DNA of 37,353 nt from a virus, in IMG/VR virus record IMGVR_UViG_3300044838_000012, positions 1 to 37,353 of that record. One strand, 5' to 3'. The position numbers and the translations under genes are program-made. Positions 16,582-28,983 of the stretch are shown here, one piece after another. The stretch's first letter is position 1. Each line of letters starts with the position of its first letter. The notes beneath the pieces are model-generated. The model searched no databases. It was not told the origin of the DNA and saw nothing but the letters and a program-made list of their open reading frames with translations.

Positions 16582-16790
16582 TGCTTCACCGCGATCTTTG
16601 GGATCGAGCAAAGGCCGCGATAATCGCCGTCTCCCATGTCGTCCCTGGCGATGGTCACGTACTCGTCCGTCTCGGCCACGACAAACCCGACCGATGTAAT
16701 GACCACCGGCCGCGGGAAGTCGTCCTTGTCGACCTGGCCGTTCTGGAGGGACGAGTCAATCCAGCGCACTGTCCGAAGTAGAGCCATCAC
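16578..16790 (-). CDS. Small hypothetical protein, 70 residues
   Basis: MALLRTVRWIDSSLQNG, followed by VVITSVGFVVAETDEYVTIARD and ending GLCSIPKIAVKQ. This matches, from memory, a common small phage family with a VRWxDS start, an SVGxxVxE core and an IPK ending; its function is unknown. ATG overlaps the stop of the glycosyltransferase gene by ATGA and its stop overlaps the DUF6625-like gene. Confidence 0.7.
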   Translation of the reverse strand: MMALLRTVRWIDSSLQNGQVDKDDFPRPVVITSVGFVVAETDEYVTIARDDMGDGDYRGLCSIPKIAVKQ

Positions 16791-17153
16791 GGCATCCACC
16801 TGTCCTCCGCGAACAAGCCAAACCGGCTCGACGAAAACAAATGCGCGACCCGCACCTCGGGGCCGGGCCGCTCCCCGTTGTAGTAGCGGATCACGGTCCC
16901 GTCCCGCCAACCGTTAAGGACACCGAACGGTGCGATGTCGAAATCGTCGGGCCTGTCAGGGACGACATCGCTCAGCAGGTGTGGGCCGCACTTGCCCCAG
17001 CGCGATTCGCCACCGTTGAGGATCGTCTCGGCTCGAGCGGCCAGGGCGATGAGCGTGTCGGCTCCCTTACGAGCAATCACGACGGCGCTGTTGTAGGGGT
17101 GGCCCGCGTCGAAGCCCGGCTCATGCTCGTACGACACGCAGACGTCTCGCGTG
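16787..17153 (-). pseudogene. 3' part of a glycosyltransferase gene split by the IS1595-type element
   Basis: This fragment encodes the C-terminal half: DVCVSYEHEPGFDAGHPYN, then AVVIARKGADTLIALAARAE and a final VAHLFSSSRFGLFAEDRWMP. It lacks its own start; the ATG in the transposon end at 17179 is probably not natural. Joined to 19785-20106 after removal of 17154-19784 and one 8 bp duplication, it gives one open frame of 226 codons plus stop reading WDLLTRDVCVSYEHE across the joint. So the intact gene was a DXD-type sugar transferase (Gly_transf_sug-like). Confidence 0.85.
17146..17153. repeat. Target-site duplication, left copy (CTCGCGTG)
   Basis: Matches 19785-19792. Eight bases is the duplication length known for the IS1595 family. 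The direct match extends by one base on each side (10 bp in all), so the exact border may shift by a base. Confidence 0.85.
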
Positions 17154-17177
17154 AAGGGGTATCCACTTAGGTGGCCC
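17154..17177 (+). repeat. Left terminal inverted repeat of element A
   Basis: AAGGGGTATCCACTTAGGTG followed by GCCC. Matches the inverted right end at 19761-19784 in 23 of 24 bases, and closely matches the ends of the cassette at 21.7-22.4 kb and the remnant at 28.68 kb. Confidence 0.9.
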
Positions 17178-17179
17178 AT

Positions 17180-18151
17180 TTAGTGAGTACCGGGCATCAT
17201 CATCTGCGGCGTGAGCAGGTTCTTGTACGGCTGCGGGTCGGTAGCGACCGCGCCCTCCATGAGCCGGTAGAACAGCAGGCCGCGCGAGCGGCTACTGCGG
17301 CGGTTGAAGCGAAACACGAACTCGTCGCAGTAGTAGTCCAACTGCTCCCGGCTCATGCCGCCCTGGTGCGTCCCGAGCAGCCACCGCTTCAAGAGGGATG
17401 CGACCCGGTGGGCGTGCGGCATGGCGACGTGCGCGACCTCTGTCTCGTCGGCGGACATGACCGAGACGCGGTGCCCGTACCCGTACCGGCTGATGTCGCG
17501 GTAGCCGACGTGGCCGTCCGTGTGGATGATCGAGCCGCGCTGCACGTTCGCGGTGATGAAGTCCTCCAAGCTGTTCGTCGTCGTGTCGGGGATACGGGCG
17601 AGCCGGACGCGCCCTGCGGCCCGCTCGTGCGCCTCGACGGCGACCACGACGATTGCCTTCCCGAACGGCGACCGGCCCTTCACCTTCGCGGTCTTGACGC
17701 CGCCGATGAACGTCTCATCGACCTCGACCACGATGCCGGGTCCGCCGATCATGTCGCGGCCCTGCCTGACCATCGCGCGGCGCAGCTTGTGCAGCCACGC
17801 CCACGCCGTCTGGTAGGAGCCGAAACCGAGCGACCGCTTCAACCCGAGCGCCGACACGCCGTTCTTCTGGCTGACGACGTGCCACATGACGTGGAACCAC
17901 ATCGTCAGCGGGAACCGTGTCTTGTCGAAGATCGTCCCGGACGTGACGCTCGTCCGCTTCCGGCAGGTTTTGCAACGCATCTTGCCGTCTGCCATGCGCC
18001 ACGGCTCCGCTACGACGCCGCAGAAGGGGCACACGAAGCCGTTGGGCCAGCGGATCTGCTCGACGTAGGCGAGGCAGGCTTCTTCGGTGTCGAATCGCTT
18101 GATGAACTCCGCGAACGTGCACGGATAGTCGGCAGTCGCAGCGGGACTCAC
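17180..18151 (-). CDS. IS1595-family (ISXO2-like) DDE transposase
   Basis: A 323-residue protein from a GTG at 18151 (VSPAATADYPCTF), which overlaps the stop of the methyltransferase C-terminal frame by GTGA; the longer start at 18196 is less likely. N-terminal zinc ribbon: VCPFCG and CKTCRKRT. Catalytic core: VVEVDETFIGG, SIIHTDGHVGY, then HVAMPHAHRVASLLKRWLLG, FVFRFNRR. This is the ISXO2/IS1595 DDE arrangement. The stop lies about 26 bases from the transposon end, so the gene is full length. It should move both element A and the transposase-free cassette nearby. Confidence 0.92.
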   Translation of the reverse strand: MSPAATADYPCTFAEFIKRFDTEEACLAYVEQIRWPNGFVCPFCGVVAEPWRMADGKMRCKTCRKRTSVTSGTIFDKTRFPLTMWFHVMWHVVSQKNGVSALGLKRSLGFGSYQTAWAWLHKLRRAMVRQGRDMIGGPGIVVEVDETFIGGVKTAKVKGRSPFGKAIVVVAVEAHERAAGRVRLARIPDTTTNSLEDFITANVQRGSIIHTDGHVGYRDISRYGYGHRVSVMSADETEVAHVAMPHAHRVASLLKRWLLGTHQGGMSREQLDYYCDEFVFRFNRRSSRSRGLLFYRLMEGAVATDPQPYKNLLTPQMMMPGTH

Positions 18152-19462
18152 GATGACTCCCCGCCAGCAGCAGCAGCCAACCGGCCACCGATCCACTCCG
18201 AGACGTTCGCGGTAACGGCGTCCCCGACCGCCGAATAGCGGCGTGAGTCGGGGGTGTCGCCGATGTCTGTCCAGCCGTCAGGCAGGCCCTGTAGGCGCTC
18301 ACATTCCACCGGAGTGAGGCGGCGGACGCCGACCTCCGGGCCTGCGACGCCGGAGTCCCTACGGCCACCACCGCGACCGGAGCGGAGCGCGGGATGTAAA
18401 CCGTCCTCCTGCGTCTCGGTCTGCGCTCCGTCCTCGCGGCCCCGGCTCGTGAACGTGACACAGTTCCCGTCCGAGTTGGAGCCGGGTCGCGGATGCGAGC
18501 GCACCGTGCCGCTCACCGCGAGGTTTCCTGACGGCTCGGCAGAGAGGGCAGGCGTGTGGTGGTGGTGGTGGACGGGATCTTGGGTTGCGTGGAAGGAAAC
18601 AAGGCGCCCCGCCTGGGCGTCGTTGTCGTCCGGCCCGCCGTTACCCATTCCCGTCAACGCGGACAAGTGCCTCCCCCCGGTCGAAGGGGTTTCCGTCGTT
18701 CCCGCGACCCTTGCCAACGCTTCCTCCAAGTGGGGAGGCAACGTCCTGCCGCATTTCTCCGCGCGGCGCAAGATGCCGGAAGCAGCCCTGGCCGACAGCG
18801 AGTATTTCGCCGGCACACGTTGCGGCGGCTCGAGGATCTCCGACAGCGAGGGCTCCGACGATGAACACTCGCCGTCGGCGCTGCGGCACTCCGAAGAACC
18901 GTGAGTCGAGAATCCGCCATGCCACGCCGTACCCGAGGTCGGCCAGCGTTCCAAGCACGACTCCGAAGTCCCGACCGCCGTTCGAACTGAGCAGTCCGGG
19001 TACGTTCTCGACGAGTACCCAGCCGGGTCGAAGAGTGTCGATGATTCGGGCGAACTCGAAGAAGAGTCCGCTGCGGTTGCCTTCGAGTCCGGCTCGTTTC
19101 CCGGCGACGCTGAGGTCTTGGCAAGGAAAGCCACCGCAGAGTAGCCCTGCCCCGGCTTCCCACCGCCCGCCGTCAACTGATGCGCCACCTCCGTCAGTAG
19201 CAGCTCGCCCCGCTGGTTCTCCGAGAGTGCCGCGATGTATGTCGCTTCCGGGTCGTAGCTCCATCCCCGGCCTTTCTGCGCCTTCAGTGTGTTCGCGACC
19301 AACGGCTCGCACGTCGTCGTAGACGGGCACTCCGGGCCAGCGGGCTCGGAGCACGTTCCGTCTGTACGGGTCGGATTCGCAGAAGAAGACGTGCTCGTGT
19401 CCGGCTCTGGCGAGTCCGAGGTCGAGTCCGCCGATCCCTGAGAAGAGCGATCCGACATTCAC
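18148..19462 (-). CDS. C5 cytosine DNA methyltransferase, split over two frames at a G6 run
   Basis: Frame A (19462-18641, GTG start) holds SLFSGIGGLDLGLARAG (AdoMet site), GGFPCQDLSVAGKRAG with the catalytic Cys, the ENV motif in VLVENVPGL and QRRRRVFIVG, then stops in the target-recognition region. Frame B, one base on, carries GVRRLTPVECERLQGLPDGW and GDAVTANVSEWIG, the two C-terminal motifs, and stops at 18148. Losing one G in the run at 18673-18678 would join them into a 437-residue enzyme. It may be a programmed or slippage frameshift, a damaged gene or a sequence error. The product would methylate cytosine, protecting DNA from restriction. Confidence 0.8.
18673..18678 (-). other. G6 homopolymer at the frame break of the cytosine methyltransferase
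   Basis: Coding strand reads GAC CGG GGG GAG in frame A and ACC GGG GGG AGG in frame B. A G5 tract restores one frame (NPFDRG joined to RHLSALTGMG). Six identical bases are prone to polymerase or ribosome slippage. Confidence 0.6.
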
Positions 19463-19677
19463 ACAGACGCCGTCTTGGCGAGAGCGTTCTTGATCTCCGC
19501 GCGGCGTCCCTTACCGTGCTTCGTGAGCGTGAGGATATCGTGCGTCTCGTTGTAGCGAGCGATGACCTGCCCGTTTTCCGTCGGCAAGTCCTCGTCGAGG
19601 ACGACGAGAACCTGCGGCGTGAGAGTCTTGCGTGTGATGCGAAGCCTGGTTGCCTTGCAAGTAGTCTGATCCTGCAT
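19459..19677 (-). CDS. Small transposon-borne protein of unknown function
   Basis: A 72-residue protein with a GGAAGG ribosome binding site before ATG 19677. It is polar: MQDQTTCKATRLRITRKTL, VLVVLDEDLPTENGQVIAR, LTKHGKGRRAEIKNALAK. The mix of beta strands and a basic end could suit a small nucleic-acid-binding or regulatory protein, but no family is recognised. It is the first gene of the operon inside the element and overlaps the methyltransferase start, so it may regulate or assist that enzyme. Confidence 0.6.
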   Translation of the reverse strand: MQDQTTCKATRLRITRKTLTPQVLVVLDEDLPTENGQVIARYNETHDILTLTKHGKGRRAEIKNALAKTASV

Positions 19678-19699
19678 CAGGGTTCCTTCCTGGTGTCAC

Positions 19700-19734
19700 G
19701 CCGGGGGCGGTTCACGCCGCGCCCCGGCTCTTTT
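19700..19734 (+). terminator. Strong GC hairpin followed by TCTTTT, oriented on the plus strand
   Basis: Arms GCCGGGGGCGG (19700-19710) and CCGCGCCCCGGC (19717-19728) pair almost fully around a six-base loop, then TCTTTT follows. On the plus strand this has the form of a Rho-independent terminator, although all genes lie on the minus strand. It lies in the leader of the transposon operon, so it may block antisense reading or fold in the operon mRNA. Confidence 0.55.
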
Positions 19735-19760
19735 GCGTCTGCCCTCAGCATAGCACAATC

Positions 19761-19784
19761 GGGCCACGTAAGTGGATACCCCTT
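19761..19784 (-). repeat. Right terminal inverted repeat of element A
   Basis: Inverse complement of the left end with a single change (ACTTACGTGG instead of ACTTAGGTGG). The inward sequence continues GATTG, which is also found inside the left end of the small cassette at 21.7 kb. Confidence 0.9.
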
Positions 19785-20106
19785 CTCGCGTGAGCAGATC
19801 CCAGCAGGGCTTCAGGCTGATCGTGTCGAGGTCGAGGTAGAGGCCGCCGTGTTCGTGGAGAATGTTCCAAGCGGCAAGGTCTTTCACGTTTGCGAGGCCA
19901 ATCGGGTGCTTCAGGTAACCGCGACAGTCGAGTAACTCACGCACGTCAACGCTGCCGTCGAGCGCCGCCCATTCCTCGCCGTCAGGTTCTTGAGTGCACC
20001 AGACGGTGATCGGCGCTTCATGCACGCGAGCGGTCGTGACTGCTCGCGCGTGTTGCCAGAGGAAGTCGCCGCCGAGGTAGATGAAGTGGACACGGCGGTC
20101 AGTCAC
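19785..20106 (-). pseudogene. 5' part of a glycosyltransferase gene split by the IS1595-type element
   Basis: GTG at 20106 gives MTDRRVHFIYLGGDFLWQHA, later VKDLAAWNILHEHGGLYLDLD with the DXD motif at residues 92-94. This is the donor-binding half of a Gly_transf_sug-like sugar transferase. The reading frame runs into the transposon end and terminates there with foreign residues at 19696. The other half is at 16787-17153. Without the acceptor half it is unlikely to be active. First eight bases at 19785-19792 are the right copy of the target duplication. Confidence 0.85.
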
Positions 20107-20146: not shown

Positions 20147-21582
20147 CACAGTGTCACGGCCGGGTGACGCCGCCGCTCCCGCTGGTTCATCACCGACACG
20201 CCCCCGTCGTTCGTCACAGCCAACGACTCGTGGACGCGGTACATGCGCGCGCCGAGCCCGTCCAGCTTCCGCGATAACGCAGCCCCGACCCCTGACCCGG
20301 TCGGAGGCAGCTTGCGCGGCCGCTCCAACCTGAAGCCGAGCAGGGTGAGCGCGTCGCGGCGACAGAGGTAGAGACCGTCCACGTGGAACGTCTCGTCGGC
20401 ATCCTCACCCGCGACAGGTGTCTTTCCGGTCCAGTTGGCGAGACCCTCGAGCGACCTGAGCCGCCATAGCGTCAGCGCCGCCGGATCGTCCAACCTGTAC
20501 CAGGCCGTGATCGCCTTCGGAATCGCGTGCCTGACCAGGCGCACGTCATCGGGGAGGAACAGATACCAGTCCGCCGAGGACCGCCGCGCCCGTCGGAGCT
20601 CGGCATCGACGACACGCCAGTATTCCTCGCGTCCGAGACGTCGGTCGAAGGTGTGCCATTCCCAGCCTGCCCGGCGAACCATCCGCTGCGGCAAGGCGTA
20701 GTCGCTGACCCCATCCGGGTCCTCGAACACGCACACATGCAGATCGACCCAGCGCGCCTCACGAGCCAGGTCGTCGAGAAGTTGGCGGAGCAGATCGGGA
20801 CGCCCACAGGTCGAGACCGACACATGGATGAGCGGCAGACGCGGAGGTGGCTGCAGCCAGTCGAAGCGGCGGATCTCCCGTTCGCTGTTTGCGCGCGTGT
20901 CGAGACGTGTCCCGTCGGCGTTGCGGTTCGAGTCGTAGATCCGACGACCGCGGCCGACGGGAGGACAGATGTCTTTGAGCCACCCCTCCCGGTGCGCAAG
21001 CGCGACCATCGGCACACCCAGCGCTCGCGCGTGGGTGGCGAACTGGACGTCGGCCATGTTCGGGTAGCGGAACACGTCACGCCAGATCGGGACATGGCCA
21101 GCGTGGAAGCCCATCGCCCCGGTGCCAAGCACGTTGATGTCGGGATCGTCCTGCTCGAGCGTGCCGAGACAGCGGACGCGCTTTCCGCTGGCGCAAACGT
21201 GGAAGCCGTTCCAGCCGAGCGTCACGCCGCCGTGGAACCCGACCGCATGGTCAGACCTCCAGGTGTCGAGCCCCTCCCGGATCCGGTCGACGTAGTCGCG
21301 CGGGTAGAGAATGTCGTCGTCCACGGTGACAACGATGCCGTCCCAGTTGTCGACGCCCGCGAACTTCTCGGCGTCGCCGCCGTTCTGGTCGCCCTTCATC
21401 AGCACTTCGACGTTCTCGTGCTTCGCGAGTCCGCGTGGTGGGCGTTCGTACTCGTTGAGGCAGAGGACTAGCCGGTCGCATTGAGGGGCGAGCGACGCGA
21501 CGGCTGCCTGCATGGATTGGGCGCGTTCGGGGATCGAAGCGAGACCAACCAGCACTTCATCGCTACTTGGCGACGTGGTCAA
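20146..21582 (-). CDS. Two-domain glycosyltransferase (tandem GT-A folds)
   Basis: A 478-residue protein from a TTG at 21582 that overlaps the stop of the small gene upstream as TTGA; a GTG at 21555 is an alternative. Domain 1 (residues about 10-240): VLVGLASIPERAQSM, DNWDGIVVTVDDDILYPRDY with an acidic DDD metal site, and VLGTGAMGFHAGHV. Domain 2 (about 250-460): LIHVSVSTCGRPDLLRQLL, WYLFLPDDVRLV with a DD pair, and DGLYLCRRDALTLLG. Two transferase domains in one chain suggest successive sugar additions. It heads the glycan island. The longer frame up to 21789 is not supported. Confidence 0.8.
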   Translation of the reverse strand: MTTSPSSDEVLVGLASIPERAQSMQAAVASLAPQCDRLVLCLNEYERPPRGLAKHENVEVLMKGDQNGGDAEKFAGVDNWDGIVVTVDDDILYPRDYVDRIREGLDTWRSDHAVGFHGGVTLGWNGFHVCASGKRVRCLGTLEQDDPDINVLGTGAMGFHAGHVPIWRDVFRYPNMADVQFATHARALGVPMVALAHREGWLKDICPPVGRGRRIYDSNRNADGTRLDTRANSEREIRRFDWLQPPPRLPLIHVSVSTCGRPDLLRQLLDDLAREARWVDLHVCVFEDPDGVSDYALPQRMVRRAGWEWHTFDRRLGREEYWRVVDAELRRARRSSADWYLFLPDDVRLVRHAIPKAITAWYRLDDPAALTLWRLRSLEGLANWTGKTPVAGEDADETFHVDGLYLCRRDALTLLGFRLERPRKLPPTGSGVGAALSRKLDGLGARMYRVHESLAVTNDGGVSVMNQRERRRHPAVTL

Positions 21583-21700
21583 CGTTGCCGCTCGCGATTG
21601 AGCTCTTCGCAGGCAGCGTGGACTGCGCGCCATTCTCCGCCGGGTGTGCGGATGTCGAGTCGCATGTCGATTGCACCTTCGAGCCGTACGGGTTTGCGTC

Positions 21701-21708
21701 CTTCGCTG
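21701..21708. repeat. Target-site duplication of the small cassette (CTTCGCTG)
   Basis: The same eight bases occur at 22381-22388, directly after the right end of the cassette. The direct match extends three bases further (11 bp in all), so the exact border is uncertain by up to three bases. Confidence 0.8.
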
Positions 21709-22380
21709 ACTGGGTATCCACTTAGGTGGCCCGATTGAGTCACGTCGCCACCTTCGACGCGCTGCGGGCCATGTTGAGTAGAGCCTCACGGAACGCGAGG
21801 GGCGTAGCCTGCGCTTCCTTCGTTCGCACGCGCTTGGACTCGTCCGGGACGTACTCGCCGGTCGCTAGGTGCTTGAAGCCGGACACCTTCGCGGTGACGC
21901 GCGGCTCCGTCCAGCGCAACGATGCCGGCTCGGGGCCGACGTAGTAAAGCCACGTCCGCTTGCGTGCCCGGTGTCCGTAGGCAGCCTGCGACACCTCCGT
22001 CGAATACCCAGGATCGAATAGCGAGCTTGTCCAGCCACCCGGTGACGGGCGTGGGAGGCTGTAGCGTGTCCACGCGAGCGATAGAGCCGGATGCTCTAGC
22101 ACTCCTCCATACGTCCTGACAGCGTGCAACGCTGCCTCGAAGCAGCCGCCGTCCTCGCCAGGTTCAAGACCGCAGGACGCCTTGACGAGCGGCCAGAGCA
22201 CCGACCAGCGAGCACACGGCGGGTGCGCGACCACGGGCCACGGGCCCGCATACAGCCGCGCGTCACGCTCCTCGTCCCACGGGTCAACGTCGGGCAGGCC
22301 GAAGTACGCGCCGCCCTTCTCGACGTACAACGCGGCGACGGTGATTTCAGCGGCTAGGGCCATCTAAGTGGATACCCCTT
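21709..22380 (-). mobile_element. Transposase-free cassette with IS1595-type ends (element B)
   Basis: A 672 bp unit. The right end reads AAGGGGTATCCACTTAGATG inward; the left end reads ACTGGGTATCCACTTAGGTG inward and continues GCCCGATTG as in element A's right end. It is flanked by 8 bp duplications and contains one ORF that fills nearly the whole unit. There is no transposase, so it must be moved in trans, most simply by the enzyme of element A 3.5 kb away. Confidence 0.88.
21740..22363 (-). CDS. Cargo protein with HPPC motif (possible DNA-modification-related phage protein)
   Basis: A 207-residue protein. Its ATG lies inside the terminal inverted repeat of the cassette (ACTTAGATGGCC). It contains VYVEKGGAYFGLPDV-type wording (LYVEKGGAYFGLPDVDPWDE), VAHPPCARWSVLW, GEDGGCFEAALHAVRTYGG, VLEHPALSLAW and SQAAYGHRARKRTWLYYVG. 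I recall this as a phage family of unknown function; the HPPC segment and the surrounding pattern recall the PC or PPY loop of DNA methyltransferases, but a classical AdoMet motif is not clear. It may modify DNA or support a modifying enzyme; that is inference. Confidence 0.6.
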   Translation of the reverse strand: MALAAEITVAALYVEKGGAYFGLPDVDPWDEERDARLYAGPWPVVAHPPCARWSVLWPLVKASCGLEPGEDGGCFEAALHAVRTYGGVLEHPALSLAWTRYSLPRPSPGGWTSSLFDPGYSTEVSQAAYGHRARKRTWLYYVGPEPASLRWTEPRVTAKVSGFKHLATGEYVPDESKRVRTKEAQATPLAFREALLNMARSASKVAT

Positions 22381-22440
22381 CTTCGCTGACTCGCCATTCG
22401 ATTCCATTGAATGATCCGCAATCACCCGGTTTGAAGTGTG

Positions 22441-22878
22441 TCATCGTTCCCACCAGATGACATTTGCTTGTCGACCGAAGATGACGACCGCCGATGGAAA
22501 CGGCGCTGGGTTAGCACCGCCTCCAAACTTGAGACGTCCTCGCAGGAAGCGTATTTCCGCGTAGCGGCAGTGGTTCCACCACCATCTGGTATCAACGCGG
22601 GCTGGCACGAGACTGACGACTGTTGCTCCGTTGTCTGCTGACTGATGTGCCTTCGCTACCCAGTTAGGGATGGCGTTTCCGTAGGGCGGGTTCATCCAAC
22701 ACGAACCCGTCCATGACTGCTGGAGACCGTCGTCGGCTTCGGTGTAGTACGCCTCGCATTTAGCGTTGTCTGGAACAGCACAGACGTCAAGCGTGAACGC
22801 GAACTCTTCGTTGAGTTGGTCGAAGAGGTCTTGCGGTGTCGCCCAGAGATCGGTCGCGCTCGAGTAGTGAATGTCCAT
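22441..22878 (-). CDS. Phage-type DNA N6-adenine methyltransferase
   Basis: A 145-residue protein matching the short phage Dam family: WATPQDLFDQLNEEFAFTLDVCA, then SCWMNPPYG with the NPPY catalytic motif at residues 63-66, and ending with PFPSAVVIFGR. These enzymes methylate adenine in DNA and help phages avoid host restriction. ATG at 22878. It lies after the terminase and a small ParB-like gene, and its stop overlaps the interrupted 61-residue gene. Confidence 0.9.
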   Translation of the reverse strand: MDIHYSSATDLWATPQDLFDQLNEEFAFTLDVCAVPDNAKCEAYYTEADDGLQQSWTGSCWMNPPYGNAIPNWVAKAHQSADNGATVVSLVPARVDTRWWWNHCRYAEIRFLRGRLKFGGGANPAPFPSAVVIFGRQANVIWWER

Positions 22879-25717: not shown

Positions 25718-25905
25718 GCGTGCCCCGCTTTCGTGTCCCAGTTTTCGCTTTTAAGGGGTTGGGTCAGACATGCTTGCCTGTCCTTGTCCCCTATATATAG
25801 GTGGGACAAGCAGGCAAGGCAGTCCGAGCGTGTCTGTGGGACAGGGTGCTTGTCCCGATATTGCACGTTGTCCGTGGTTGTCCGGGACAAGGTTGGGATG
25901 GTCAT
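25714..25905 (-). CDS. Doubtful 63-residue ORF over a repeat-rich region
   Basis: ATG 25905 overlaps the methyltransferase stop by ATGA and the stop overlaps the next start, which supports translation. However the sequence (TDNVQYRDKHPVPQTRSDC and later LYIGDKDRQACLTQPLK) has no domain pattern and lies over a cluster of inverted TTGTCC repeats with lower GC. It may be a non-coding control region that happens to be open. Confidence 0.3.
   Translation of the reverse strand: MTIPTLSRTTTDNVQYRDKHPVPQTRSDCLACLSHLYIGDKDRQACLTQPLKSENWDTKAGHA
25778..25890. promoter_or_regulatory. Cluster of TTGTCC/GGACAA inverted repeats (operator or origin candidate)
   Basis: Six copies of TTGTCC lie within 107 bases: plus strand at 25784, 25850, 25868 and 25878, and as GGACAA at 25804 and 25885. 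Two pairs form palindromes: TTGTCCGGGACAA (25878-25890) and a wider one around the AT-rich core CTATATATAG (25791-25800). A third, GGGACA and TGTCCC, spans 25838-25856. It sits between the replication-type genes and the packaging genes. It may be an operator, an iteron-type origin or a promoter control site. Confidence 0.55.
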
Positions 25906-27449
25906 GCGAGGAGGCTCTGTTGTTGCAGTCTGCGTGCCGCAAGCTGCGCGTATTCGGGGTTGAGTTCAATGCCGATTGAACGGCGGCCTAGGCGTCGGGC
26001 GACGAGGGCCGTGGTGCCGCTGCCCATGAACGGGTCGAGAACGACACCGTTCTGCGGGCAGCCTGCTTTGAGGATTCGTTCGACGAGCGCTTCGGGCCAG
26101 GTGGCGAAGTGGGCTTCGGGGTAGCCTTGGGTCGGGATCGTCCAGACCGAGCGCGGGTTCTTCCTGCCATCGATCTGCACGTTCGGAACTTCGCGCTCCC
26201 CCTTAACATCCGTCCGTCCATCCCGCGCGTCAGCGCCACGCTTCCGTCCGAAAGCGTCAATCGCTCGAATTTGCGCCTTCGTCTTCGGCTGCATCCACCC
26301 AGATGCCGTCTCCGTCCCCTCGTACTTCGGCACCGTCTGGTCACCCCAGCGCGCCCACTCCGCCGGTTCGGCGATCGCCTCTGTGTCGAAGTGGTAGCGC
26401 GCTGACTTGGAGAGCAGGAAGACGTACGAGTGGGCGGTCGTGCAACGGTCCGTCGCCGACTCGGGCATCGCGTTCGGCTTTCCCCATACGATGCACTGCC
26501 GCAGATAGAACCCCGGCTCCCACATCGATTCTGGGTCCTTGCCGTCCAGATCAACCGCCGCACCAGCGTGGAGCGCCTTGATCGCCTCCTGATGGTCCGC
26601 CGCCGCGTCTCCTGATCGTGGGCACGCAAGTGCGACTCTCGCCTGCTGCTGCTTTGCCACAAGGTGGGGATAGAGCTCGCGGAGTAGATCGCGCGCCTGA
26701 TCGCCCGTCACCTGCCACTGGTACAGCGTCTGCTTGCGCTGTTGCTTCCCTGTCCCTGCCTCGTGAGCGCTAATTGAACCGAGTCCGTAGATCGACTTGC
26801 ATTTCTCGACGATCGCGCGACTTGTGTTCGAGACGCCGACCATTGCGCCGTAGGTGTCAGTTCTGCGCTCGTAGTTCACGGTCGTGCCGTCGCGCCGAGT
26901 GAACTTCGACCCTGTGGGTCTTCCTGCCTTGCGACGGTGGATGTGGATACACCCTTCGGCATCCACCATCGCGGCGAGCCACACGCGATCAATTTCCTTC
27001 TTGATGCGGCCGATGTACCAAGGACCGCGTAGCGCCTTCGCGAGCAGCCACGGTGTTCCAATGAGGTCCTTCGGCTTACAGCCGTCAACTAGCCGAGACC
27101 GCCCCTCAATAGCGGCGCGGGCTCTGCCGATCTGGCGGGAGGCCATCTGCCCTGTTTCGCCCTGCGGGCCGTTACGCGACCCGACATAGGAGTCACCGCA
27201 CTCGATCCAGAGCGTCCCCGCTGGCTTCAGCAGCCGCCGCACCTCACGGAACACGCCGACAAGCTCGGCGCACCAATCCTCCGGCGACGCCTCCAACCCA
27301 ATCTGACCCTCCACGCCGTAATCGCGTAGCCCGTAGAACGGCGGCGACGTCGCGCAGCAGTCCACCGACTCGTCCGGCAGCTCGGCCAGCACGTCACGCA
27401 CGTCGCCCACGTAGAGCTGGAAGTCGACGTCATCAACAAACGGTTCCAT
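25902..27449 (-). CDS. DNA N4/N6 methyltransferase with internal LAGLIDADG domain
   Basis: A 515-residue protein. Methyltransferase parts: CCATSPPFYGLRDYG (TSPPF motif at 34-38) at the N-terminus, and VVLDPFMGSGTTALVARRLG (AdoMet motif at 472-480) at the end. Between residues about 143 and 312 is an inserted domain: DRVWLAAMVDAEGCIHIHRR, VGVSNTSRAIVEKCKSIYG, LLRELYPHLVAKQQQARVAL, a LAGLIDADG endonuclease pattern. There are no intein end motifs, so it is likely a built-in domain. ATG 27449 overlaps the helicase stop as TGATG. It may both methylate DNA and help recognise target sites. Confidence 0.85.
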   Translation of the reverse strand: MEPFVDDVDFQLYVGDVRDVLAELPDESVDCCATSPPFYGLRDYGVEGQIGLEASPEDWCAELVGVFREVRRLLKPAGTLWIECGDSYVGSRNGPQGETGQMASRQIGRARAAIEGRSRLVDGCKPKDLIGTPWLLAKALRGPWYIGRIKKEIDRVWLAAMVDAEGCIHIHRRKAGRPTGSKFTRRDGTTVNYERRTDTYGAMVGVSNTSRAIVEKCKSIYGLGSISAHEAGTGKQQRKQTLYQWQVTGDQARDLLRELYPHLVAKQQQARVALACPRSGDAAADHQEAIKALHAGAAVDLDGKDPESMWEPGFYLRQCIVWGKPNAMPESATDRCTTAHSYVFLLSKSARYHFDTEAIAEPAEWARWGDQTVPKYEGTETASGWMQPKTKAQIRAIDAFGRKRGADARDGRTDVKGEREVPNVQIDGRKNPRSVWTIPTQGYPEAHFATWPEALVERILKAGCPQNGVVLDPFMGSGTTALVARRLGRRSIGIELNPEYAQLAARRLQQQSLLA

Positions 27450-28684
27450 CAGAACGGAAGGCTCTCAGCCTCGGGCGGCACCGTCTCGGTCTCCACCCAC
27501 TCCTTCAGCCCCCACAGCACCGCGTTCGATTTCGCGCCCAGCGCCTTCGCTTGCACGCCGGTTAGCGACACGAACATGTGCGGCGCCCCTTCCAACGCCT
27601 TCTTGACGTCGACGCGGCGCCGCTCGAGATCCTTGGCGAGCTCGGTGCCGGTCTGCCAGCCTTGTCCCTTGCGGCCACGCTTGTTCGCCCGGTTTGTGGC
27701 GAGGTGCTCGTACAGGTCGGGTTCGAGGATGGTGGCGTCTCCTTCTTCTGCGAGCGCGACGAAGCTCATGGTGTTCCAGACGCGGCCCAGCACGATCGGG
27801 TTGGGGCGGCGTTTCCGCGCCCAGCGCAACTTCGGGTAGGCGAGGCGGGCCTGATCGTCGGAGTGCGTAGCGGTGAGGGTGAGCAGCGTGTCGAGGTGGC
27901 CGCCCCAGGCGCCCGAGATGCGGGCAAGCTCGTCTTCGGTGCGGTCGATCCGTTCCCGGAAGTGATGGAGGAAGAAGAAGGCTCGGTTGGTGCCGAGGCC
28001 GAGCGGTCTGAGGCAGGCGACGAAGTCTCGCGTGTCGGAGGGGGACCCAACGCCGGCGGGGCCGAGGCTCGAGAGCGGGTCGCCGATCACGAGGTCGACC
28101 TGGTGCTGGTCGAGTTCGGTGGCGGCGCGTCGGCTGGCGTCTCTGTCGGCGAAGCTGAACGATCCCCAGAGCCAGGTCTGGATGTGGAGGCTGCCACCGA
28201 GGTCCCGGATGTCATGGGGGAAGGCGGTGAGTTTGTCTTGGAGCTTGACCCTGAACATCTCCTGCGGGCCTTCGTTTTCTATCAGGGCGACGTTGAGAGG
28301 CCGGGGGACGTGCCAGGGCGTGGGTCCTTGGTCGTTTTCGATCGGTGGGTAGGGGAGTCCGGCTGCGAGGTGGCAGGCGAGGTCGAGGATCCAGGTGGTT
28401 TTGCCTGCGCCTGGTCTGCCTGCGAGTAGTGAGAGTCCTCCTGCGGCGAGGATCGCGGCATCGTCGTTGCCCCAGAGTGGTGTGGGCGGGTCGGTCTTCT
28501 GGTTGACGAAGTCGTAGGCGTCGAGGAAGACGGGGCCGTCGTCGATGCTGCCGTTGGTTGTGGCGAGTTCGCTGTCGACCTCGGCGTCGATCAGGGATTG
28601 GTAGGCGAGGGCGTCGGGGTCGTAGCCGACTGCGGCGAAGGTTTCGGCGAGCTCGGCAGCTGTGACGAGTGGTTCAGTCGTCAA
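27449..28684 (-). CDS. RepA/DnaB-like hexameric ATPase (AAA_25), putative replicative helicase
   Basis: A 411-residue protein from a TTG at 28684 overlapping the stop upstream as TTGA. LLAGRPGAGKTTWILDLACH holds Walker A (89-97); VDLVIGDPLSSLGP holds Walker B (196-204); FFFLHHFRE lies further on. The C-terminal part (GWQTGTELAKDLERRRVDVK) looks like a winged helix. RepA-like ATPases of this class unwind DNA at phage and plasmid origins. It lies immediately downstream of a truncated IS1595-type end, which supplied the bases around its start. Confidence 0.75.
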   Translation of the reverse strand: MTTEPLVTAAELAETFAAVGYDPDALAYQSLIDAEVDSELATTNGSIDDGPVFLDAYDFVNQKTDPPTPLWGNDDAAILAAGGLSLLAGRPGAGKTTWILDLACHLAAGLPYPPIENDQGPTPWHVPRPLNVALIENEGPQEMFRVKLQDKLTAFPHDIRDLGGSLHIQTWLWGSFSFADRDASRRAATELDQHQVDLVIGDPLSSLGPAGVGSPSDTRDFVACLRPLGLGTNRAFFFLHHFRERIDRTEDELARISGAWGGHLDTLLTLTATHSDDQARLAYPKLRWARKRRPNPIVLGRVWNTMSFVALAEEGDATILEPDLYEHLATNRANKRGRKGQGWQTGTELAKDLERRRVDVKKALEGAPHMFVSLTGVQAKALGAKSNAVLWGLKEWVETETVPPEAESLPF

Positions 28685-28983
28685 GGGGTATCCACCTTAG
28701 TTGACCCATTCAGCGAGTCCCCGGCAACGTCATCTGCGGCGTGAGCAGGTTCTTGTAGGGGTGCGGATCGGTGGCGACCGCGCCTTCCATGAGCCGGTAG
28801 AACAGCAGGCCGCGCCTTCTCGTGACCGAGCAGCGCTAGCACGGCCTCGGCCAGCATCCAGTCAGTCGTGTCTCGGTCGATGGTTTCGTAGACGTGCCAC
28901 GCGCAGCGTTCGAGGTCATCCCATGTGCCAGTGATCGCTGCCGGATACGTCCTCGCGGCAGCCGATTCGTCTAGCGATCCCAC
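28681..28983 (-). pseudogene. Small gene truncated by element C
   Basis: GTG 28983 has a strong GGAAGGAGG site. Residues 1-56 are credible: SLDESAAARTYPAAITGTWD, LERCAWHVYETIDRDTTDWM, LAEAVLALLGHEK. The remaining 44 residues are read from the transposon remnant in a foreign frame (ending STKVDTP), so the natural C-terminus has been lost. The new stop overlaps the helicase TTG start and may keep coupling. Confidence 0.7.
28683..28815 (-). mobile_element. Truncated IS1595-type end with 3' stub of a transposase gene (element C)
   Basis: Begins AAGGGGTATCCACCTTAG, one end of the same family, and continues with the last ~33 codons of a transposase related to that of element A (RGLLFYRLMEGAVATDPHPY and onward, stop included). 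It then breaks abruptly into host gene sequence at 28816. The second end and the duplication are missing, so an internal deletion took most of the element. It differs from element A at many positions, so it is an older or separate insertion. Confidence 0.85.

What the first reader, a model, noticed from the sequence alone, without database searches (positions are those of the whole stretch)
21701..22388. Minimal single-gene mobile cassette of 672 bp
A 624-base ORF fills nearly all the space between two inverted ends, and its ATG lies inside the right-hand inverted repeat. Removing the unit and one duplicate rebuilds a perfect 61-codon gene with normal overlaps to both neighbours. It is a non-autonomous transposon that carries a gene rather than filler, smaller than usual IS elements.
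Basis: seen in the sequence. Interest (0 to 1): 0.8.

Follow-up and report, generated by a model that had tools for sequence, protein, structure and literature searches.

The report
Phage single-gene transposon cassette (672 bp)
A phage genome carries a 672-base hitch-hiking transposon made of almost nothing but one gene, probably a DNA-methylating enzyme, and it shares its ends with a full transposon 2 kb away and with about ten similar elements in other phages, so phage genes can be moved about as small transposable packets.

Summary
Window 21709-22380 is a 672-bp element with 24-nt inverted ends (21 of 24 identical). It is flanked by the 8-bp duplication CTTCGCTG, and 93% of it is one 207-codon ORF whose ATG lies in the right end. 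Joining the flanks restores a 61-codon ORF with ATGA and TTGA overlaps to its neighbours.

The same ends bound a 2,631-bp element (17154-19784; duplication CTCGCGTG) encoding an intact IS1595-family transposase (NF033547, 8e-56) and a cytosine-methyltransferase gene. The 672-bp unit is best read as a mobile insertion cassette (MIC) of the IS1595 family.

It belongs to a family: twelve elements with perfect 8- or 9-bp duplications in 11 viral records, four with transposase, the others 203-1,468 bp without, inserted in a palindromic target (GTCTYCGRAGAC). Pfam DNA-methyltransferase genes are about 18-fold enriched inside the elements. This unit's cargo has no Pfam match, but its confident model matches C5-cytosine methyltransferases.

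Not shown: movement, mobilisation in trans, enzyme activity, or a relative with the empty 61-codon gene (no relative of that locus was found). New variant of a known kind.

The parts
21701..21708 (.). left copy of the 8-bp target duplication CTTCGCTG
21709..21732 (+). left terminal inverted repeat ACTGGGTATCCACTTAGGTGGCCC
21740..22363 (-). cargo gene, 207 aa, phrog_12600 (7e-56); model matches C5-cytosine methyltransferases; PPC and EHP motifs invariant; ATG inside the right repeat
22357..22380 (-). right terminal inverted repeat AAGGGGTATCCACTTAGATGGCCC
22381..22388 (.). right copy of the target duplication CTTCGCTG
22381..22444 (-). 5' part of the interrupted 61-codon gene (its start overlaps the Dam-like gene, ATGA)
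21579..21708 (-). 3' part of the interrupted 61-codon gene (its stop overlaps the next gene's TTG start)
17146..17153 (.). left 8-bp duplication CTCGCGTG of the large element
17154..19784 (.). 2,631-bp transposase-bearing element E01 with the same ends (AAGGGGTATCCACTTA.GTGGCCC on both sides)
17180..18196 (-). IS1595-family transposase, 338 aa, open; likely trans-acting source for the 672-bp unit
   Evidence: Pfam PF12762 9e-30 and PF12760 1e-16; NF033547 8e-56; alignment A3
18148..19462 (-). C5-cytosine methyltransferase passenger gene of E01; N part 18641-19462 and C part (18148-) in different frames
19459..19677 (-). 72-aa passenger ORF of E01, function unknown
19785..19792 (.). right 8-bp duplication CTCGCGTG of the large element
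16787..17153 (-). 3' part of a glycosyltransferase-like gene interrupted by E01 (joined flanks give a 226-aa ORF)
19793..20106 (-). 5' part of the same glycosyltransferase-like gene
28683..28823 (+). solo left end plus transposase C-terminal remnant (86% identical over 36 aa): decayed third copy

Best explanation
The 672-bp unit is a mobile insertion cassette of the IS1595 family: two transposase-recognised ends around a single passenger gene, with no transposase of its own. It inserted into a palindrome-like target inside a 61-codon phage gene, making an 8-bp duplication, almost certainly by a DDE transposase of the kind encoded by the 2.6-kb element in the same genome (or in a co-resident phage). 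The ends and duplications are shown. The transposase acting in trans is inferred from the near-identical ends. The passenger is most likely a compact C5-cytosine-methyltransferase-like protein (fold predicted, activity not shown), and the family preferentially carries DNA-methyltransferase genes. The likely benefit to the phage is protection of its DNA from host restriction (inferred). The repeat supplies the start codon, so the gene fills the cassette and can be read from the surrounding phage operon, which runs in the same direction (inferred).
For: Ends and 8-bp duplication. Same ends, same kind of duplication and an intact IS1595 transposase 2 kb away. Twelve elements with perfect duplications in 11 viral records; symmetrised target consensus GTCTYCGRAGAC. 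Bacterial IS1595 elements with related ends (e.g. ACGGGGTATCCCCTTAGCTC, 1,053 bp) and 8-bp duplications. Joined flanks rebuild ORFs: the 61-codon gene here, a 226-aa glycosyltransferase-like gene at E01, and a 299-aa IS1595-type transposase with PF12762 spanning the junction at E09. None of the 80 cargo homologues kept from other phages lies between such ends, so elsewhere it is an ordinary phage gene. Cargo model pLDDT 91, pTM 0.87; the 50 listed rows of both PDB searches are C5-type DNA methyltransferases (one, 3g7u, named only as putative DNA modification methyltransferase), VIA Z 7.4-9.0. Pfam methyltransferases: 4 in 17.5 kb of elements versus 9 in 708 kb outside, Poisson P about 9e-5.
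Against: No excised, reinserted or empty form of this copy was seen; no relative of the 61-codon gene was found. Profile comparison of the cargo with two C5-methyltransferases is not significant and no Pfam family matches; its motif I is degenerate, and a Z of 7-9 is middling. The left end differs from the right at 3 of 24 positions.
Confidence: 0.87

Rival explanations
1. Inactive relic: a former mobile cassette whose left end (ACTGGG) is now too damaged to be moved, so it is a fixed gene in this phage.
For: Left and right ends differ at 3 of 24 positions; no second copy of this cassette was found.
Against: The positions that differ are variable in elements with perfect duplications (ATAGGG, ATTGGG, AACGGG); the inner 21 nt are 20/21 identical; the cargo ORF and the transposase ORF are intact.
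Confidence: 0.25
2. Self-mobile ultra-small element in the manner of mycobacteriophage MPMEs: the single ORF is itself the recombinase.
For: Size and one-ORF layout resemble MPMEs (439 bp, inverted repeats; PMC3029335).
Against: The ORF's family (phrog_12600) occurs in many phages without these ends, models as a C5-methyltransferase fold, the ORF differs from cassette to cassette, and the ends belong to an IS1595 transposase element; MPMEs add 6 bp between left repeat and target, here there is an 8-bp duplication.
Confidence: 0.02
3. Inverted repeat and duplication are chance, and the 61-codon ORF is not a gene.
For: No homologue of the 61-codon product was found.
Against: Four copies of the 20-nt core in the window versus 0.01 expected; the same ends with perfect duplications in 11 viral records.
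Confidence: 0.01
4. Origin by internal deletion of a transposase-bearing element that already carried this gene, rather than by capture of a phage gene between two solo ends (a variant of the best explanation, not exclusive of it).
For: Other cassettes share passenger genes with transposase-bearing members: E03 with E12, E07 with E06/E12, E05 with E06/E12.
Against: No transposase-bearing element with this cargo was found; E02's left end resembles the right-type end of E01 (GGCCCGATT), as expected if ends were reshuffled.
Confidence: 0.45

Closest known systems
Mobile insertion cassettes (MIC231 and relatives)
   Same: IS-type ends around a passenger gene, no transposase, dependence on a related IS in trans (PMC1196294, PMC3129680)
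   Different: MIC231 uses IS231 ends in Bacillus cereus; here IS1595 ends, in phages, with cargo filling 93% of 672 bp and a start codon supplied by the repeat
IS1595 family, including members with passenger genes ('transporter IS'; Siguier et al. 2009, as cited in PMC3129680)
   Same: DDE_Tnp_IS1595 and zinc-ribbon domains, GGG-type ends, 8-bp duplications
   Different: Phage transposases form a group 75-77% identical to the window's, at most 54% to the bacterial ones compared; cargo rich in DNA methyltransferases; many transposase-less members
Mycobacteriophage mobile elements MPME1/MPME2
   Same: Ultra-small elements with inverted repeats inserted in phage genes (PMC3029335)
   Different: MPMEs are about 440 bp, are two related types, and add an unexplained 6 bp at one end; here the ORFs differ between cassettes and there is a target duplication
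MITEs
   Same: Short, transposase-less, same ends as an IS (E09, 203 bp, is one)
   Different: MITEs carry no gene; this unit is 93% coding

Membership tests
Mobile insertion cassette (MIC) | IS-like terminal inverted repeats flanked by a target duplication | tested here: met
   24-nt ends, CTTCGCTG duplication
Mobile insertion cassette (MIC) | passenger gene in place of a transposase | tested here: met
   only long ORF is phrog_12600; no transposase match
Mobile insertion cassette (MIC) | cognate IS with matching ends exists | tested here: met
   E01 in the same genome, ends differ by 1-3 nt
Mobile insertion cassette (MIC) | moved in trans by that transposase | not testable with these tools
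   needs an assay or reads
IS1595 family (for E01, and by its ends the cassette) | DDE_Tnp_IS1595 domain and N-terminal zinc ribbon | tested here: met
   PF12762 9e-30, PF12760 1e-16; NF033547 189 bits, cut-off 75
IS1595 family (for E01, and by its ends the cassette) | 8-bp target duplication | tested here: met
   11 of 12 elements exactly 8 bp, one 9 bp
IS1595 family (for E01, and by its ends the cassette) | conserved catalytic acids | tested here: inconclusive
   first two aspartates (EVDET, HTD) aligned; the usual third-acid position seems to read A/S in HRVASLLKRW, as in most of the bacterial elements aligned
MPME | 6-bp addition at one end instead of a target duplication | tested here: not met
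   8-bp duplication on both sides
C5-cytosine DNA methyltransferase (cargo) | fold | tested here: met
   listed rows of both searches are C5-type methyltransferases; middling Z 7.4-9.0
C5-cytosine DNA methyltransferase (cargo) | catalytic PC motif and ENV-like motif | tested here: inconclusive
   P48 P49 C50 and E90 H91 P92 invariant in 26 homologues; correspondence to motifs IV and VI judged by eye only
C5-cytosine DNA methyltransferase (cargo) | AdoMet-binding motif I (FxGxG) and sequence-profile match | tested here: not met
   degenerate 'AALYVEKGGAYFG'; no Pfam match, hhalign not significant. Hence 'C5-methyltransferase-like', not a member by sequence

The most novel reading that the evidence does not exclude
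A phage-borne IS1595 lineage works as a dedicated exchange system for anti-restriction genes: a few transposase-bearing members mobilise many minimal one-gene cassettes, mainly DNA methyltransferases, between co-infecting phages, with ends that supply translation signals so that a captured gene is expressed from the recipient phage operon.
Probability: 0.3. Interest if true: 0.8.

Novelty: new variant of a known kind. Interest (0 to 1): 0.6.

Why it matters
Phage genomes are mosaics of single genes, yet how one small gene is moved precisely is often left to illegitimate recombination. Here single phage genes sit between transposon ends with target duplications in a number of phages, and DNA methyltransferases are over-represented. 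That gives a concrete, testable route for the spread of accessory, possibly anti-restriction, genes among phages.

Tried and rejected
Searches for an empty site in relatives: 61-aa product in IMG/VR (37 pattern hits, none confirmed) and phage records (one insignificant hit); downstream ORF product, no hits; TerL relatives L125/L126 (66%) lack the neighbourhood. An 11-bp duplication with a shortened left end (CTTCGCTGACT) was considered and dropped: A-N-N-GGG ends are general in the family and AC commonly follows the duplication as part of the target palindrome. Relatives cannot be drawn for a virus record. PHROGs/Pfam gave nothing for most other passengers. hhalign of cargo against two C5-methyltransferases was not significant. 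A model of the E07 196-aa protein was too poor to search (pLDDT 55). L111/L112 (E13) has ends but no matching duplication and different left flanks in two contigs; it is not counted among the twelve. The 226-aa rebuilt glycosyltransferase-like product has no phage relative, and its Pfam match stops at the junction.

Full report
OBSERVATION. The repeats, ORF, duplication and rebuilt 61-codon gene are all present as described. The 20-nt end core is found four times in the 37-kb window, 0.01 expected. The window is a tailed phage: terminase, portal and head genes are recognised.

PARTNER ELEMENT. The other two cores bound 17154-19784, flanked by CTCGCGTG on both sides. It holds an open 338-aa IS1595 transposase (PF12762, PF12760, NF033547), a C5-methyltransferase gene whose N and C parts are in different frames and a 72-aa ORF. 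Joining its flanks gives a 226-aa ORF with a weak Gly_transf_sug match (1.3e-4) that ends at the junction. A fifth end at 28683 is followed by a transposase remnant, so a third copy has decayed.

FAMILY. Pattern searches of IMG/VR with the ends and with the transposase, followed by pairing of ends, gave twelve elements in 11 viral records with perfect duplications (11 of 8 bp, one of 9 bp): E01 2631 and E02 672 (window), E03 620 (L119), E04 506 (L121), E05 1370 (L120), E06 2550 (L088), E07 1468 (L115), E08 1046 (L123), E09 203 (L122), E10 1034 (L124), E11 2010 (L113), E12 2630 (L114). E01, E06, E11 and E12 hold the transposase; other records show only remnants or none, though they may be fragments. 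The targets share a palindrome, GTCTYCGRAGAC when symmetrised. E09 is a MITE whose first 31 bp equal the right end of E01; it interrupts another IS1595-type transposase gene, and joining the flanks restores 299 codons with PF12762 running across the junction. This is the clearest empty-site demonstration for the family.

BACTERIA. The 18-letter end pattern gave nine hits in 84,980 bacterial and archaeal species, where I estimate about 7.5 by chance; three of the nine (L103, L105, L106) are short paired MITE-like units. Related bacterial IS1595 elements on plasmids have similar ends and 8-bp duplications, 990-1,518 bp, and the Sinomonas one holds an immunity-8 family gene inside. The other phage transposases are 75-77% identical to the window's; the bacterial ones compared and those in 296 genomes of one phylum reach at most 54%. 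So this looks like a phage lineage of an IS1595 subgroup, within the sampling done.

CARGO. The 207-aa protein is phrog_12600; 98 relatives were confirmed in IMG/VR, the 80 kept are 43-63% identical, and none of those 80 lies between such ends, so elsewhere it is an ordinary phage gene. Many homologues start at about residue 8 of the cassette protein, so the repeat supplies a new start codon just upstream of the natural start, and the stop lies 7 bases from the left repeat. The model (pLDDT 91) matches C5-type cytosine methyltransferases, with invariant PPC and EHP, but motif I is degenerate and no profile match is significant.

METHYLTRANSFERASES. Pfam methyltransferases lie in E01, E08, E10 and E13 (E13 has ends but no duplication): 4 in 17.5 kb of elements against 9 in 708 kb outside, P about 9e-5. 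E02 by fold and E07 by motifs (DPPY, FPGSG) may add two more. Passenger genes are shared between cassettes and transposase-bearing members, and some occur as ordinary genes in other phages, which fits modular exchange.

MECHANISM. Shown: ends, duplications, target preference, interrupted ORF, transposase in the same genome. Inferred: movement by that transposase in trans, expression from the phage operon, methylation, and restriction evasion as the benefit. The mode of origin (internal deletion or capture) is open.

KNOWN KINDS. This is a mobile insertion cassette of the IS1595 family. MICs and passenger-carrying IS1595 elements are described (PMC3129680, PMC1196294; IS1595 features in PMC8101967), and MPMEs are a phage analogue in size only (PMC3029335). 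I found no paper in the held library describing a phage family of IS1595 cassettes with methyltransferase cargo, which is weak evidence of novelty since most subscription papers are absent.

Noticed in passing
window 18148-19462: The C5-methyltransferase gene of the large element has its N-terminal and C-terminal parts in different reading frames, so it is either frameshifted or a sequencing error.
   Followed up: partly
window 25902-27449: N4/N6 methyltransferase ORF in which the PF01555 match is split (27177-27365 and 25935-26513) with an HNH-like insert (phrog_5046) between, looking like an invading endonuclease domain.
   Followed up: no
window 28683-28823: Solo transposon end with a transposase C-terminal remnant, directly beside the start of a primase/helicase-like gene.
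   Followed up: partly
L111 1091-3623 and L112 3350-5882: Same cassette array (one mismatch in 2,533 bp) with identical right flanks but different left flanks starting exactly at the repeat, in two metagenome contigs; rearrangement or assembly chimera.
   Followed up: partly
L122 3441-3643: A 203-bp MITE of this family sits inside another IS1595-type transposase gene in a 92-kb viral contig.
   Followed up: yes
L147 2011-3528: Sinomonas plasmid pSA01 IS1595 element carries an immunity-8 family gene as passenger, with perfect ends and 8-bp duplication.
   Followed up: partly
alignment A3, window transposase residues 263-272: The transposase subgroup has A/S where IS1595 relatives usually have the third catalytic acid (HRVASLLKRW), in phage and most bacterial members aligned; which residue takes that role is unclear.
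   Followed up: no
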